This document shows positions 16,297-24,689 of a stretch of 42,495 bases of DNA, in pieces. The number at the start of each line of letters is the position of its first letter. Position 1 is the first letter of the stretch. The position numbers were made by a program, and so were the translations under genes. The DNA lies in NCBI GenBank assembly GCA_903927345.1, contig CAIYMO010000015.1:1-42495 (forward strand), written 5' to 3'. The notes under the pieces were generated by a model, which did no database searches, was not told the DNA's origin, and was given only the letters and a program-made list of their open reading frames with translations. The DNA is from an uncultured Armatimonadota bacterium. Its GTDB lineage: Bacteria > Armatimonadota > Fimbriimonadia > Fimbriimonadales > Fimbriimonadaceae.

Positions 16297-17883
16297 TTAC
16301 CGAACGAAGTCGGCGATAACCCCCGGAACCGAGGCGTCGAAGCCGACGACGTTGAGCATTCCGGCATCGTTCGGGTCAGCGATGGTCATCCGGTTGGATG
16401 CCATCGCGACCACGACCAGCTTTGCCTGAATTCCCATCTTTCGACGGTACTCGGCGATCGCCTGAGCCGGGTGCTGCGAACCGTACCAAGTCTCCGAGTC
16501 CGTGTAGATCACGAAGACGTCGGCCTCAATCCGATTCTTGATTGCGTACTGGATCGGCGCAGAACAGTCTGTTCCACCTCCTCCAGTCTTCTCCAAGGTC
16601 TCAACAACCTTGTCGAGTCGCATCGACTTGTTCAAGTTCAACGGATAAACCTTGGTGTCAAAGGCCAAGTGAGTCACTTGATCTTCAACCGCCTCAGTAA
16701 CGAGTGCCATTGCTCCACACGCCTTACGGCAGTCAAGCCCAGCAACTCCGCTGACCAGGGTTCCCGCCATCGAACCCGAAACGTCGAGTCCAAGGACGTA
16801 CCGCTTTCCGGTTGACCGAACGTTCTGGAACGTTGCGTAGAACGCATCGTTCAAAGCGTCGACAATCGACTGAACCGGCTTCCAGGTGTTGTCACCCCGA
16901 ATACCCCGTCCACCAGAGTAGGTGTTGAGGGCAGCAAGGATCGCAACCGGGTGGATACGCGCCTTTCGGAGCTTTTCAGCATCTCGAAGAGTCGAAACAA
17001 CCTTCTCTACCGCCGCCGAGTCGCCTCGGAACAGTCCGCTCTTCAGCAATCCAACCTTGGTCATCGTCGCCAAGTTTCGGATCATCGCGGTGAGCGGCAT
17101 GTCCTCCAGAAGTGCTTCCCAGACCTCAGTCTCGGTTAACATTTCCGTCGGGACCGCCTCTCGCGGAATCCGGTTCTCAACGATCAGAGCCTTCGCCTTG
17201 TCGAGGTCCTTGACCTCCTTCAAAGCCTGGACGGCCTGGATTAGCGGAGCCTCTCCGGTCAACTCGCCATCGACAACCCACTTGTACAGAATGTTGTGGG
17301 TCTCAGTAGCGGCGACCGGGTGAGCAAGCCGAAGCAAGTCACGGTTCGACCAACCCTCACGAGCCTGGTACTTCACAAGTCCGTAAGCCAAAGCCTCTGG
17401 AGTCTGTGCGTTGTACCACTTGCCGACTGCCTTTCGGAGTCCTCGACCCCATCCCCGCATTCCGTCGCAAGCTGCGGCGAAGGCAAAGAGATGAGTTCCG
17501 GTCCGACAAACCTTCGGCAGAGCCGCAAGCGCCGCGCTCCGAGTCTTGTCACATCCGAACGAAGCAGCAAGGGCAAGGGCAAAGACCGAAGGATCGTTCT
17601 TTGGCGCCAGCCCCTTAGTGCTGACCTCGACGATGCGATCCACGACTCGCTGTCCATCTTCCTTGATTGCCTCGATGACGTTGAGGGTGTTCTCCCGGGT
17701 GAGTTGCTTCGACCCAGTGTAGTACGTTCCACTTTCGCTACCGAGGATCAAGAAGCGTTCCAGCATGGTCCACCGATTCACGTTCCAGCTATAGCCGCCA
17801 GCATGGTTCAGGACTTGGCCTGAGCCGGGAATGGCTTGCTTCTGATTGGTCTTCTTGGTGTTGAATAGTTTGCTGTAGTTCAT
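16297..17883 (-). CDS. rsr: Ro60/Rsr RNA-binding protein (TROVE + vWA)
   Basis: 528 residues, the usual Ro60 length. Ring of HEAT-like repeats (TROVE, about 15-355; YSWNVNRWTMLERFLILGSE, RTGTHLFAFAAACD) followed by a von Willebrand A domain (about 360-528) with an intact MIDAS: D367-x-S-x-S (GLDVSGSMAG), T438 (GGGGTDC) and D462 (YTDSE). Family members bind Y RNAs on the outer ring surface and misfolded RNA ends in the cavity; in Deinococcus, Rsr and a Y RNA tether PNPase. The ATG at 17883 is fixed by a strong ribosome site (GAGGAGG at 17894-17900). Longer in-frame extensions to 18045 run through Y-RNA sequence and are not believed. The six Y-RNA elements lie directly upstream on the same strand. 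Confidence 0.95.
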   Translation of the reverse strand: MNYSKLFNTKKTNQKQAIPGSGQVLNHAGGYSWNVNRWTMLERFLILGSESGTYYTGSKQLTRENTLNVIEAIKEDGQRVVDRIVEVSTKGLAPKNDPSVFALALAASFGCDKTRSAALAALPKVCRTGTHLFAFAAACDGMRGWGRGLRKAVGKWYNAQTPEALAYGLVKYQAREGWSNRDLLRLAHPVAATETHNILYKWVVDGELTGEAPLIQAVQALKEVKDLDKAKALIVENRIPREAVPTEMLTETEVWEALLEDMPLTAMIRNLATMTKVGLLKSGLFRGDSAAVEKVVSTLRDAEKLRKARIHPVAILAALNTYSGGRGIRGDNTWKPVQSIVDALNDAFYATFQNVRSTGKRYVLGLDVSGSMAGTLVSGVAGLDCRKACGAMALVTEAVEDQVTHLAFDTKVYPLNLNKSMRLDKVVETLEKTGGGGTDCSAPIQYAIKNRIEADVFVIYTDSETWYGSQHPAQAIAEYRRKMGIQAKLVVVAMASNRMTIADPNDAGMLNVVGFDASVPGVIADFVR

Positions 17884-17918
17884 GTTCTTCTTTCCTCCTC
17901 GTAGGATTCTGCTTTTCG

Positions 17919-18025
17919 CCAGCGGACAAGTTTTGCAGCGGATGTTTCCCTGATGGACCAGCGTTCGCTGTCCACAACGGTTTCCCTTTTCAGGGTTCGA
18001 TAACCCTCTGCTTCCGGCCCGCCGG
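17919..18025 (-). ncRNA. Y RNA 6 (nearest Ro60)
   Basis: 107 nt. Helix 1 CCGGCGGGC (18025-18017) pairs with GTCCGCTGG (17927-17919). Then CGGAA, helix 2 strand GCAGAGGG and TTATC; the return strand TCCGCTGC pairs 7 of 8 and is followed by AAAACTT before helix 1 closes. This is the Ro60-binding layout. The loop region folds as CCCTGA/TCAGGG enclosing a hairpin TGGACAGC-GAAC-GCTGGTCCA with one bulge; it has no tRNA-like arms. It ends 35 nt upstream of the Ro60 ATG, so it could be processed from, or regulate, the Ro60 mRNA leader. Confidence 0.85.
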
Positions 18026-18037
18026 AAATCGTATGTG

Positions 18038-18163
18038 CTCGTCATGCAGGCAAGTTATGCCGTGGTCAAAAAACCTTTGGGAATTCTCCTTCAGGCCCTG
18101 GATTCGAACCAGTGGGCTTGTGCCTTTAACCGATAAACCAAATGCTTCGGCCCGCACGACGAA
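18038..18163 (-). ncRNA. Y RNA 5 with T-arm-like effector
   Basis: 126 nt. The longest uninterrupted helix 1: TTCGTCGTGCGGGC (18163-18150) pairs along all 14 positions with 18051-18038. CGAAG, eight bases (CATTTGGT) and TTATC follow with standard spacing; the helix 2 return strand is weaker (ACCA core) and AACTT precedes the helix 1 return. The loop holds a canonical TΨC-type arm, CTGGTTCGAATCCAG (18112-18098), flanked by AGGC/GCCT and followed by a GGAGAATTCC hairpin. It is tRNA-mimic-like but lacks a convincing D-arm or anticodon arm. Confidence 0.83.
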
Positions 18164-18172
18164 CCTTGTTGA

Positions 18173-18313
18173 CTCCGGGCAAGTGCGAACTTGGGTTCGA
18201 CTGCCATGCTGCGTTCCACACGCCTCGAGTCTTACGACTCGGCCGGCCTTTCCGCCGAAGCACCTCTAAAGCAGCCGATTTGAGTGAGATAACCCAACCT
18301 CATCGGCCCGGAG
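18173..18313 (-). ncRNA. Y RNA 4
   Basis: 141 nt. Helix 1 is a perfect 8 bp: CTCCGGGC (18313-18306) with GCCCGGAG (18180-18173). CGATG, helix 2 strand AGGTTGGG and TTATC follow; the return strand CCCAAGTT pairs 7 of 8, then CGCACTT before helix 1, almost the UGCACUU of human Y1. The large loop has a long-range GCTGC/GCAGC pairing and a CGAGTC-GTAA-GACTCG hairpin (18241-18226). No clear tRNA arms were recognised. Confidence 0.85.
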
Positions 18314-18330
18314 AAGATGATTTTCAATGC

Positions 18331-18484
18331 TTAAGAGCGCAGACAAGGTGTCCAAGTAGACAAGATGCTCTACCAACTGAGCTACGTCCCGTCTGTGACT
18401 TCCCACAGTCGGGACGACTGGACTCGAACCAGCGACCCTCCGCTTAACAGGCGATAATCTACAAGAATCGGCCCACACTCTTAA
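18331..18484 (-). ncRNA. Y RNA 3 with circularly permuted tRNA-Asn-like module
   Basis: 154 nt. Helix 1 TTAAGAGTGTGGGC (18484-18471) pairs with 18344-18331 (14 pairs, several wobbles). CGATT, CTTGTAGA and TTATC follow. The loop then contains, in order, an anticodon-type arm TCGC-CTGTTAA-GCGG (loop 18450-18444, GTT at 18448-18446), a variable segment, a TΨC arm GCTGG-TTCGAGT-CCAGT (18433-18417), the 3' acceptor strand CGTCCCG (18416-18410), an 18-nt capping hairpin, the 5' acceptor strand CGGGACG (18391-18385), TA, and a D-arm GCTC-AGTTGGTA-GAGC (18382-18367). All arms of a tRNA are present but opened between D and anticodon arms and joined to the Ro60 stem. YrlA-type bacterial Y RNAs are known to mimic tRNA; an anticodon-like arm with an Asn loop is the odd part. 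Confidence 0.9.
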
Positions 18485-18494
18485 TGCATATGAA

Positions 18495-18561
18495 GCACAG
18501 GCTAGTCAGTTAGTCTGCCGCTGATCTTCCCAAAAGATAAGGCAAACCATCCGGCCCGTGC
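18495..18561 (-). ncRNA. Y RNA 2 (minimal)
   Basis: 67 nt. Helix 1 GCACGGGC (18561-18554) pairs with GCCTGTGC (18502-18495). CGGAT, helix 2 strand GGTTTGCC (return GGCAGACT, 8 pairs with wobbles) and TTATC follow, and the 3' junction AACTGACTAGCC resembles the CUUGACUAGCC end of human Y3. The loop is only a small ATCTT-TTGGG-AAGAT hairpin, so it is essentially a bare Ro60-binding site without an effector module. Confidence 0.87.
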
Positions 18562-18621
18562 AAATTGTAGTTGCGACAATCTAGCCGTCCCGAGAGACGG
18601 AGATGTCAGTTGAAATCGAAA

Positions 18622-18687
18622 CGCGGGCAAGTGGTTGACCTGAGTAGTTTCACGTAACAGGCGAGAACTCAAGCCATTCGGCCCGCG
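18622..18687 (-). ncRNA. Y RNA 1 (minimal)
   Basis: 66 nt. Helix 1 is a perfect 7 bp: CGCGGGC (18687-18681) with GCCCGCG (18628-18622). CGAAT, helix 2 strand GGCTTGAG (return CTCAGGTC, 8 pairs with wobbles) and TTCTC in place of TTATC follow; AACCACTT precedes the helix 1 return. The 23-nt loop shares TCGCCTGTTA with the anticodon-like arm of Y RNA 3, suggesting that Y1 and Y3 are related and that Y1 lost, or never gained, the tRNA module. Confidence 0.82.
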
Positions 18688-18728
18688 AAATTGAGTCTGG
18701 GAGAGAGAGCAAAGCGGCTCGTCTCACT

Positions 18729-22358: not shown

Positions 22359-24689
22359 CTACTGTCGCTTTCGAAACTTTGGCTCGTCGCCGCCTGAAGC
22401 AGGTCGCTCAGCTCGATCTGGGCGAGGTCCGTCTCGTCGAGGTCCTCGATCTCCGCCTCGGTCGCCACCGCGATCTCGGCCGCCAAATCCGCCGCCTCGT
22501 CCGCCACGGTCACTACCACGTCCGCCTGGGCGTCCGCCACCGCCGCCACCCTGTGATGGAGGAGGGGTTCCGTTTTCGTTACCTTCCAAGGTCGGGAGGT
22601 CTTGCTTAACGCCGATCGCGGTCAAGTTGAGTCGTCCCTGATCGTCAAGCTCGTGGGTCTTCACATTGAGCGTGTCGCCCATGTTAACCACGTCTTCGAT
22701 TCGGTTGATCTCCTTGAGGGTGATCTGCTCCTTAGGAACGAATCCTTGCTTTCCGCTTGCAAGCTCGACAAGTACGCCGCGACCCATGATTCGGGTAACG
22801 ACGCCAGTCGTCTCGACACCCATTTCGATGTCGCCAACTGCATCCTTAACCATCTGCATGGCCTTGTTAGCAGCTTCTGCACCGGTCGAACCGATGAGAA
22901 CTCGACCGTCTTGCTGAACGTCAACGGTTGCACCTGACTCTGCACAGATCTTCTTGATGGTCGCGCCACCAGGTCCGATGAGCGCGCCAATCTTTTCAGG
23001 ATTGATCTGCATCGTAACGACCTGAGGAGCAGTCTCAGCAACTCGCGAACGAGGAGCGTCGATCTCAGCTTCCATGATGTCAAGAATCTGGAGTCGAGCG
23101 GTGAGCGCTTGGTTCAGAGCTCGTGCAAGAACTTCGTCAGGAATACCGTCGAGCTTGGTGTCAAGCTGAAGGGCGGTGATTCCAGCGCGGGTTCCAGCGA
23201 CCTTAAAGTCCATGTCTCCGCAGAAGTCTTCCATTCCGATGATGTCGGTGAGAACCTTGTACTCCTTACCGTCAGACATCAGACCCATCGCGATTCCTGC
23301 AACAGGAGCCTTGATCTGGATACCGGCATCCATAAGAGCCAGGGTAGAACCGCAGACCGAAGCCATCGAGGTCGAACCGTTTGACTCAAGAACCTCAGAG
23401 GTGAGGAGCATGGTGTAAGGGAACTGAGGGTCGCTGAGCGGGAGAACTGGGATCAGTGCTCGCTCTGCAAGTGCGCCGTGGCCAACTTCTCGTCGTCCTC
23501 GACCTCGGTTCGGGCGGCATTCGCCAACCGAATAGGCAGGGAAGTTGTAGAAGTGCATGTATCGCTTAGCATCGACTTCTTCGAGTCCGTCCATGGTTTG
23601 GGCGTCTCCAGGAAGGCCGAGAGTAGCGATGGTCATGACCTGGGTCTGACCGCGGGTGAAGAGACCTGAACCGTGAACGCGTGGAAGAATTCCGGCGGTG
23701 GCTTCGATGTTTCGAAGCTCGTCGAGCTTTCGTCCGTCTGGTCGCTTGTCCTTAGTAATGATGAGGTCGCGAACGACACACTTCACAACGGTATCAGCCG
23801 CTTCAGGAAGCTGACCGAGAATTGCAGGCTGGTCGGCATACTCAGGCTTGAGCTTCTCAACGATGTCCTTGATCAGGTCGTTAAGAGCGGACTCTCGAAC
23901 GGCCTTGTCAGCCGAACCGAGAAGAGCCTTTTCGATGTCCTTGCCAAACTTCTTGCTGATCGCCTTCTTCAGGTCCTCATCAATCGTGAACAAGCTGACT
24001 TCTCGGATCTTCGTTCCGACGGTCTTCTTAAACTCTTCAAACTTGAGAGCGATTTCGCGAATGGCGTTGTGAGCGAACTTCAGAGCTGCGGCCATGTCGG
24101 CTTCGCTAACTTCGTTTGCGCCCGACTCAACCATCGAGATAGCATCCTTGTGTCCAGCAACGATAAGGTCAAGGTCAGAAGCCTTGATCTGGTCGTTGGT
24201 TGGGAAGAGGATCAACTCGCCATCGATTCGTCCAACTCGGACACAAGCGATTGGAGCCTTGAACGGAATGTTCGAGACTGCAAGAGCTGCTCCGGCGGCA
24301 CAAACTGCGAGAACGTCGGGAGGGCAATCCTGCTCAACCGAGAATGGCATCGCCATGACTTGAACGTCGTTGCGAAGTCCCTTCGGGAAGAGTGGTCGGA
24401 TTGGTCGGTCCATCAGTCGTGAGACGAGGATCGCCTTTTCGGATGGTCGTCCACCGGACTTAATGAATCCGCCAGGAATCTTTCCGACGGCATACTTGCG
24501 CTCTTCATAGTCGCAAGTGAGAGGCAGGAAGTCGATTCCTGCTTTGGGGTTTTCGGACATCGTTGCGACGCCCAGGACGATCGTCTCGCCCATTCCAAGG
24601 AGAACTGCGCCGCCGGCTTGCTTAGCCACGCGACCTGTTTCGAGGTAGAACTCCTTTCCGCCTACCTCGAATTCGAGTGTGTGTATCAT
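22359..24689 (-). CDS. pnp: Polynucleotide phosphorylase (PNPase) with RGG-rich tail
   Basis: 776 residues. Phosphorolytic 3'-5' exoribonuclease. Two RNase PH domains (about 1-210 and 310-545; KAILVSRLMDRPIRPLFP, FTRGQTQVMTI, DFKVAGTRAGITALQLD), a KH domain (about 555-615; INPEKIGALIGPGGATIKKI) and an S1 domain (about 625-695). The last about 70 residues are a low-complexity Gly/Arg/Asp/Pro tail with repeated RGG and RGGD units, longer than in the model enzymes. GGAG lies 5 nt before the ATG, and a CCGTTAATCTTAACGG palindrome overlaps the rpsO stop and the edge of this ribosome site. In the Deinococcus RYPER complex, Y RNA docks Ro60 onto the KH/S1 end of PNPase, so the closeness of the Ro60/Y locus on the same strand may be functional. 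Confidence 0.97.
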   Translation of the reverse strand: MIHTLEFEVGGKEFYLETGRVAKQAGGAVLLGMGETIVLGVATMSENPKAGIDFLPLTCDYEERKYAVGKIPGGFIKSGGRPSEKAILVSRLMDRPIRPLFPKGLRNDVQVMAMPFSVEQDCPPDVLAVCAAGAALAVSNIPFKAPIACVRVGRIDGELILFPTNDQIKASDLDLIVAGHKDAISMVESGANEVSEADMAAALKFAHNAIREIALKFEEFKKTVGTKIREVSLFTIDEDLKKAISKKFGKDIEKALLGSADKAVRESALNDLIKDIVEKLKPEYADQPAILGQLPEAADTVVKCVVRDLIITKDKRPDGRKLDELRNIEATAGILPRVHGSGLFTRGQTQVMTIATLGLPGDAQTMDGLEEVDAKRYMHFYNFPAYSVGECRPNRGRGRREVGHGALAERALIPVLPLSDPQFPYTMLLTSEVLESNGSTSMASVCGSTLALMDAGIQIKAPVAGIAMGLMSDGKEYKVLTDIIGMEDFCGDMDFKVAGTRAGITALQLDTKLDGIPDEVLARALNQALTARLQILDIMEAEIDAPRSRVAETAPQVVTMQINPEKIGALIGPGGATIKKICAESGATVDVQQDGRVLIGSTGAEAANKAMQMVKDAVGDIEMGVETTGVVTRIMGRGVLVELASGKQGFVPKEQITLKEINRIEDVVNMGDTLNVKTHELDDQGRLNLTAIGVKQDLPTLEGNENGTPPPSQGGGGGGRPGGRGSDRGGRGGGFGGRDRGGDRGGDRGPRRDGPRPDRAERPASGGDEPKFRKRQ

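What the first reader, a model, noticed from the sequence alone, without database searches (positions are those of the whole stretch)
18331..18484. Y RNA carrying a complete circularly permuted tRNA with an Asn-type anticodon loop
Within Y RNA 3 the order is anticodon arm (loop CTGTTAA), variable loop, T-arm, 3' acceptor strand, capping hairpin, 5' acceptor strand, D-arm. The acceptor strands CGTCCCG and CGGGACG pair perfectly, and the D and T arms are canonical. tRNA-like modules are known in YrlA RNAs, but an intact anticodon arm fused to the Ro60 stem would make it a near-perfect tRNA mimic, possibly a substrate for tRNA modification enzymes. GTT is also a Tgt (queuosine) target anticodon, and tgt lies 3 kb away.
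Basis: partly seen in the sequence, partly recalled or inferred. Interest (0 to 1): 0.9.

Follow-up and report, generated by a model that had tools for sequence, protein, structure and literature searches.

The report
Y RNA enclosing a rearranged whole tRNA
A bacterial Y RNA made next to the Ro60 gene contains all four arms of a tRNA in rotated order, including a real-looking anticodon arm that the Rfam model of this RNA family lacks; relatives keep the anticodon loop's frame but change its three-letter anticodon freely, so it looks like tRNA mimicry by shape and not a coding tRNA.

Summary
In a Fimbriimonadaceae (Armatimonadota) contig, the third of six Y RNAs upstream of Ro60 (18331-18484, minus strand) is a circularly permuted tRNA: Ro stem, anticodon arm (loop CUGUUAA), variable loop, T arm, 3' acceptor strand, cap, 5' acceptor strand, D arm, Ro stem. 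In 13 related RNAs 93.6% of pair cells are standard, with both-sides changes in five of six helices, including the anticodon stem. A sister species changed T and acceptor stems largely compensatorily. Permuted tRNA-like modules are known (YrlA, PDB 6CU1), but the Rfam YrlA consensus has no anticodon hairpin: there the tRNA is cut at the anticodon loop and its anticodon stem continues into the Ro stem. Here the cut lies between D and anticodon arms, leaving the whole anticodon arm. I find this layout in several phyla, phages, and beside divergent Ro60-like proteins. In 40 nonredundant RNAs with 7-nt loops, U33 and R37 are 40/40 while positions 34-36 take 23 triplets. So the Asn anticodon, the queuosine idea and tgt proximity are incidental: the sister has GUC. 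Best reading: a tRNA-shape mimic tethering a tRNA-recognising partner, perhaps PNPase, to Ro60. That function is inferred.

The parts
18331..18484 (-). Y RNA 3: complete unit, Ro stem plus circularly permuted tRNA module
   Evidence: R1 model hit 18333-18482 at 132.4 bits (it is one of the model's training sequences)
18472..18484 (-). Ro stem, outer 5' strand (UUAAGAGUGUGGG), followed by CCGA
   Evidence: pairs with 18331-18343; covariation helix 1
18331..18343 (-). Ro stem, outer 3' strand, preceded by CUUG
   Evidence: helix 1; GGGCCGA/CUUG core as in other Y RNAs of the array
18458..18462 (-). inner Ro-side stem 5' strand GUAGA (pairs with 18356-18360)
   Evidence: helix 2, 3 of 5 pairs with both-sides changes
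18455..18457 (-). conserved UUA of the GGUUAUC-like motif before the anticodon arm
   Evidence: UUA invariant in A3
18440..18454 (-). anticodon arm: stem UCGC/GCGG, loop CUGUUAA (18444-18450)
   Evidence: U33 and R37 conserved, 34-36 variable
18434..18439 (-). position 43 and variable loop GGGUC
   Evidence: GGU invariant in A3
18417..18433 (-). T arm GCUGG-UUCGAGU-CCAGU
18410..18416 (-). 3' acceptor strand CGUCCCG
   Evidence: helix 5
18392..18409 (-). capping hairpin joining the acceptor strands
   Evidence: length varies in relatives
18385..18391 (-). 5' acceptor strand CGGGACG
   Evidence: helix 5
18367..18382 (-). D arm GCUC-AGUUGGUA-GAGC
   Evidence: stem invariant in 13 RNAs
18617..18692 (-). 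Y RNA 1 (short)
18495..18561 (-). Y RNA 2 (short)
   Evidence: fold, GGGCC/GGCCU core
18169..18317 (-). Y RNA 4
18040..18161 (-). Y RNA 5: GGUUUAUC motif and T arm, no D arm
17916..18028 (-). Y RNA 6, inside the over-long 5' end of the Ro60 ORF
16297..17883 (-). Ro60 (rsr); likely true start at 17883, not 18045
   Evidence: Pfam PF25045 3.5e-61 and PF05731 9.4e-43; PDB human RO60 3e-109, D. radiodurans Rsr 3.6e-107; start from alignment with G018

Best explanation
It is a Ro60-associated Y RNA whose effector module is a complete tRNA fold, circularly permuted between positions 26 and 27 (between D and anticodon arms) and held on the Ro60-binding stem. Shown by sequence and covariation: the Ro stem, the tRNA arms, the tertiary-contact residues, the capped acceptor, and an anticodon arm with a free triplet. 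Inferred: Ro60 binds the GGGCCGA/CUUG stem; the module is dressed by ordinary tRNA modification enzymes (TruB, Dus, as published for YrlA); and its whole-tRNA shape, including the anticodon arm, docks a tRNA-recognising partner, most likely PNPase or a tRNA-processing enzyme, so the RNA tethers or gates that partner on Ro60. The anticodon triplet is not read. Layout and anticodon-arm mimicry: about 0.9. Scaffold mechanism as stated: about 0.5.
For: Real Ro60 gene beside it. Covariation for the whole fold: 21 pairs with both-sides changes, 0/500 shuffles. Sister species G018 keeps Ro stem, anticodon stem, V loop and D stem but changes T pairs 50-64, 51-63 and acceptor pairs 3-70, 4-69 on both sides; pair 1-72 is lost. 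Anticodon closing pair is CG 13, AU 6, UA 3, GC 1. In 40 nonredundant RNAs with a 7-nt hairpin loop: U33 40/40, R37 40/40, Y32 35/40, 23 different triplets; a later, overlapping set drawn with a covariance model gives 37/38 and 37/38 (it includes two probable ordinary tRNAs). Host tRNA loops show the same pattern. A 7-nt loop is best in 40/61 against 9.8% in shuffles. Tertiary residues in 34 modules: GG 34, TTC 34, A58 34, U8 29, A14 28 (GG was required in choosing them). Model R1's strongest full-length hits among 291 phylum genomes are nearly all at Ro60 or Ro60-like loci. pnp lies about 4 kb from the array here and near it in G018 and G001. RYPER and YrlA modification: PMC8394870.
Against: No transcript, binding or probing data. 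Secondary-structure energy alone prefers other pairings in most members. pnp was not found in the stretches fetched from G003 and G007, and its linkage in three congeners may be mere shared synteny. Some Y RNAs in the same arrays have no anticodon arm, so the arm is not needed for every Ro60 RNA.
Confidence: 0.6

Rival explanations
1. The anticodon arm is a bait or sensor for anticodon nucleases: the Ro60-bound mimic is cut like a tRNA, sparing tRNAs or reporting damage, possibly with RtcB repair.
For: A competitive-inhibitor role of the YrlA tRNA-like domain was suggested, while Salmonella YrlA is not cut (PMC7790460); by the Rfam consensus that type has no anticodon loop, whereas this layout does. 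RtcB is encoded in the genome. Free variation of the triplet would suit a general bait.
Against: RtcB lies on another contig (C55); no cleavage data.
Confidence: 0.15
2. The hairpin is not an anticodon mimic but a plain structural hairpin overlapping the conserved UUAUC motif, closed by a U-R pair over a triloop.
For: UUAUC is conserved also in units without an anticodon arm; U33-R37 could pair; the fold programs do not favour the arm strongly.
Against: Position 33 is always U and never another pair-maker (40/40), unlike the covarying stem; spacing to the T arm is that of tRNA; the arm persists where the UUAUC motif is replaced (L202, L203: ACAUACGCC, ACAUUCGCC).
Confidence: 0.15
3. It is a specific tRNA-Asn mimic or Tgt (queuosine) substrate.
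For: Loop CUGUUAA is that of tRNA-Asn; Tgt is known to accept hairpins with UGU (own knowledge); tgt is 2.6 kb away.
Against: Triplet not conserved (GUC in G018, AUC in G001); G34U35 in 11 of 40 against 8 expected from base frequencies (counted); nearest host tRNA is Arg; tgt linkage only in G018.
Confidence: 0.05
4. It is a permuted tRNA gene that yields a functional tRNA after processing.
For: All four arms and a 7-bp acceptor are present; permuted tRNA genes exist in red algae and archaea (own knowledge).
Against: Host has a normal tRNA-Asn gene; no CCA after the 3' acceptor strand; Ro stem conserved with covariation; at least one relative has a triplet complementary to a stop codon (UUA, L133).
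Confidence: 0.03

Closest known systems
YrlA bacterial Y RNA (Rfam RF02553; PDB 6CU1; Chen 2014, Wang 2018)
   Same: Ro60-linked, Ro stem, D/T/acceptor arms, circular permutation of tRNA, capped acceptor.
   Different: RF02553 has no anticodon hairpin; its anticodon-stem strands flank the module and continue into the Ro stem (tRNA cut at the anticodon loop). Here the cut is between D and anticodon arms and a full anticodon arm is kept. Score 39.5 bits, cut-off 69. Chen 2014 and Wang 2018 were not held, so I cannot say whether they noticed such RNAs.
D. radiodurans Y RNA / RYPER
   Same: Ro60 orthologue with Y RNA; PNPase gene nearby here.
   Different: That RNA was not compared here.
tRNA-Asn(GUU)
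   Same: anticodon loop CUGUUAA, canonical arms.
   Different: permuted, capped, A73-equivalent, 49/73 identity to the host's own.
Permuted tRNA genes (Cyanidioschyzon, archaea)
   Same: 3' half precedes 5' half.
   Different: those are excised to make a tRNA; here the halves are held on a conserved Ro stem. Compared from own knowledge.

Membership tests
Bacterial Y RNA (Ro60-associated) | encoded beside a Ro60/rsr gene | tested here: met
Bacterial Y RNA (Ro60-associated) | conserved Ro60-binding stem with GG(U/C)CGA/CUUG core | tested here: met
Bacterial Y RNA (Ro60-associated) | bound by Ro60 in the cell | not testable with these tools
   needs co-purification
YrlA (RF02553) | D, T and acceptor arms in permuted order | tested here: met
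YrlA (RF02553) | curated Rfam score (69 bits) | tested here: not met
   39.5 bits, E 4.3e-7
YrlA (RF02553) | helix between the strand before the V loop and the strand after the D arm (anticodon stem continuing into the Ro stem) | tested here: not met
   GCGGA cannot pair with UCUUG; a local hairpin is formed instead
YrlA (RF02553) | D and pseudouridine modifications | not testable with these tools
   needs RNA
tRNA | standard arm order and tRNA model score | tested here: not met
   ARAGORN 0 genes; 18.6 bits, cut-off 29
tRNA-Asn | anticodon GUU in a 7-nt loop | tested here: met
tRNA-Asn | G73 and free 3' CCA | tested here: not met
   A follows the 3' strand, then the cap; host tRNA-Asn has G73 and CCA
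Permuted tRNA gene | release of a mature tRNA | not testable with these tools
   needs small-RNA sequencing

The most novel reading that the evidence does not exclude
A second permutation class of Y RNA, spread over several phyla and phages and serving also divergent Ro60-like proteins, presents a full anticodon arm with a freely drifting triplet as a universal decoy or sensor for anticodon-arm enzymes (anticodon nucleases or modification enzymes), tying Ro60 to tRNA damage.
Probability: 0.15. Interest if true: 0.85.

Novelty: new variant of a known kind. Interest (0 to 1): 0.6.

Why it matters
YrlA is described as mimicking the D, T and acceptor arms of tRNA, and in its Rfam model the anticodon end merges with the Ro60 stem. 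A widespread second layout with a whole anticodon arm, keeping U33 and a purine at 37 while the triplet changes, says that something recognises the anticodon arm by shape and not by code. It makes testable which tRNA-binding partner bacterial Ro60 RNPs borrow or mimic, an open question for Y RNAs, and offers a sequence model for finding these RNAs where Rfam's YrlA model does not reach its cut-off.

Tried and rejected
Rfam at gathering cut-off: nothing in the window; a permissive search showed RF02553 below cut-off. Minimum-free-energy folding as sole evidence: rejected, it gives inconsistent folds across homologues. A stem between V loop (GGUC) and GGUU upstream: by eye it gives a C-U mismatch in several homologues and no covariation; rejected, not formally scored. 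ARAGORN on re-joined sequences as proof: weakened by its own shuffle control. An automatic filter to exclude ordinary tRNAs removed true cases and was dropped; still includes two probable array tRNAs (L012:821, L010:371). Simple promoter/terminator scan: no convincing signals. tgt linkage: not conserved. Origin from the host tRNA-Asn: not supported. Key papers not held. The 477-aa Ro60-like protein was not folded because its locus came from a route the structure tool does not list.

Full report
Where it is. The window is a contig of a Fimbriimonadaceae genome (Armatimonadota), judged from its closest Ro60 relatives, which are Fimbriimonas-type genomes, and the kinship listing. A Ro60 gene lies on the minus strand (Pfam vWA_Ro60 3.5e-61, TROVE 9.4e-43; human RO60 structure 3e-109, Deinococcus Rsr 3.6e-107). 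Upstream of it, on the same strand, six units carry the Y RNA core GG-CCG...CUUG or a close form: 18617-18692, 18495-18561, 18331-18484, 18169-18317, 18040-18161 and 17916-18028. The sixth sits inside the first codons of the longest Ro60 ORF; comparison with sister species G018 puts the real start at 17883.

Checking the observation. Acceptor 7/7 Watson-Crick, D stem 4/4, T stem 5 with one G-U, anticodon stem 4 with one U-G and a seven-base loop CUGUUAA. Residues for the tRNA elbow (U8, A14, G15-C48, GG, UUCGA) are present. Re-joined in tRNA order ARAGORN calls tRNA-Asn(GUU).

Evolutionary evidence. In G018 (same genus) the orthologue is 85% identical. Its Ro stem (one U-C change), anticodon stem, V loop and D stem are unchanged, while T-stem pairs 50-64 and 51-63 and acceptor pairs 3-70 and 4-69 changed on both sides, acceptor pair 1-72 is lost, and the anticodon went from GUU-AA to GUC-AC. 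Across 13 RNAs of this layout (alignment A3) 93.6% of pair cells are standard, against 34-46% when slid; 21 of 36 pairs have both-sides changes and no shuffle of 500 reaches the observed values. The helices with both-sides changes are the outer and inner Ro stems, anticodon, T and acceptor; the D stem never varies.

The anticodon loop. I listed every unit with a Ro core, a UUAYC-like motif and a T arm: 123 nonredundant units, with a peak of the UUA-to-T-arm spacing at 20-21 nt (48 units). In the 61 with spacing 19-22 the best hairpin has a 7-nt loop in 40, against 9.8% of shuffled segments; in those 40, position 33 is U in all, 37 is a purine in all (A 35, G 5), 32 a pyrimidine in 35, while 34-36 take 23 triplets. 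The set was chosen by pairing and loop length, not by loop letters, except that loops whose ends could pair were excluded. Without any selection, 26 units of spacing 21 have 90.4% pairing in the fixed tRNA register against 31-53% slid, U33 in 24 and R37 in 26. A set drawn with a covariance model, overlapping the first, gives the same picture: U33 37/38, R37 37/38, 24 triplets. The host's own tRNA loops show the same pattern. The closing pair of the arm is CG 13, AU 6, UA 3, GC 1.

How it differs from YrlA. A permissive Rfam search finds RF02553 (YrlA) over 18334-18464 with 39.5 bits, E 4.3e-7, below the cut-off of 69. The printed consensus structure is informative: after the 5' Ro strand comes one strand of a 4-bp helix, a 4-nt spacer, the T arm, the acceptor with its cap, the D arm, and then the other strand of that helix. 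That is a tRNA opened in its anticodon loop, the anticodon stem running on into the Ro stem (class A). This agrees with the published circular permutation of 6CU1 and its 0.91 coverage of tRNA. In the window RNA the two flanking strands cannot pair (GCGGA/UCUUG) and a complete local anticodon hairpin exists (class B). Sorting RNAs with complete modules automatically gave 24 class B, 12 class A and 7 unsorted; two of the A calls (L158, L171) look like B by eye. Both kinds appear in one array (L003: 605 looks like class A by eye, 917 and 1068 class B). Class B occurs in Armatimonadota, Chloroflexota (L026, L171), an actinomycete (L175), a Picosynechococcus plasmid (L176), phages of Gordonia, Mycobacterium, Streptomyces and Microbacterium (L139-L142), and viral contigs. 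For L139, L140:2193 and L142 the 7-nt arm was read by eye; the automatic parse preferred other hairpins.

Reach of the model. Model R1, run over 291 phylum genomes, gives its strongest full-length hits nearly all at Ro60 loci; ordinary tRNAs score about 45-55 bits over the middle part only. It also led to loci without a vWA_Ro60 match. In G098 and G250 the neighbours are divergent TROVE proteins (1e-11, 6e-12). In G081 and G211 the neighbour is a 477-aa protein with only weak vWA matches that aligns with Ro60 by profile comparison (probability 95.9%, E 6e-9; the first profile holds only two sequences); a partial copy lies in G082. Their RNAs have another Ro-like stem (GCGCGCGCCCCGA...ACUUGCGCGCGC in G081), and in G081 and G082 one has an anticodon arm with loop CUGUUAA although the UUAUC motif is replaced.

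How it most likely works. Published work (PMC8394870) says that YrlA's tRNA-like domain is modified by DusA and TruB, and that Ro60, Y RNA and PNPase form an RNA-degradation machine. PNPase is encoded at 22359-24689, about 4 kb from the array, and near it in two congeners. I infer that Y RNA 3 docks a tRNA-recognising partner onto Ro60 and that the full anticodon arm contributes shape. The triplet is not used: it changes between sister species, includes UUA (complementary to a stop codon, L133), and the acceptor is capped. An alternative worth testing is a bait for anticodon nucleases: Salmonella YrlA is reported not to be cut (PMC7790460), and in the Rfam consensus that type has no anticodon loop.

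Weak points. There is no RNA evidence. Free-energy folding prefers other pairings for most members. The alignment behind the covariation consists of RNAs chosen for this layout, although the unselected test agrees. The founding papers on YrlA could not be read, so prior notice of this layout cannot be excluded.

Noticed in passing
window 17883-18045 (-): The 582-aa Ro60 ORF is over-long: its first 54 codons are Y RNA 6 and spacer; the likely start is ATGAACTACAGC at 17883 after GGAGG.
   Followed up: yes
window 22359-24689 (-): PNPase (pnp) is encoded about 4 kb from the Y RNA array; also near it in G018 and G001, not found in the stretches fetched from G007 and G003.
   Followed up: partly
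L202:5072-6505 (-), L209:2752-4185 (-), partial in L203: A 477-aa protein with no Pfam match over cut-off, resembling Ro60 by profile comparison, beside permuted-tRNA Y RNAs with a different Ro stem.
   Followed up: partly
L204:5746-7119 (+), L205:2287-3876 (+): Divergent TROVE proteins directly downstream of paired permuted-tRNA RNAs.
   Followed up: partly
window 17919-18026 and 18172-18315 (-): Y RNAs 6 and 4 weakly match nematode sbRNA family RF01656 (20.1 and 17.5 bits, cut-off 38), sharing GGGUUAUC and CUUG; the UUAUC motif may be common to bacterial and animal Y-type RNAs.
   Followed up: no
L108:4512, L112:4705, L113:4653, L132:4775: Y-type units with anticodon arm and T arm where no clear D arm follows, resembling the 3' half of a tRNA.
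   Followed up: no
L208:7345-7499 (-): Permuted-tRNA RNA about 400 kb from one of that genome's Ro60 genes on the same contig, with further weaker copies beside it; neighbour proteins not identified.
   Followed up: no
just after the D arm in many loci (e.g. L006, L094, L101, L202): An A-rich linker (often CAAAAC or UAAAAC) recurs between D arm and the 3' Ro strand.
   Followed up: no
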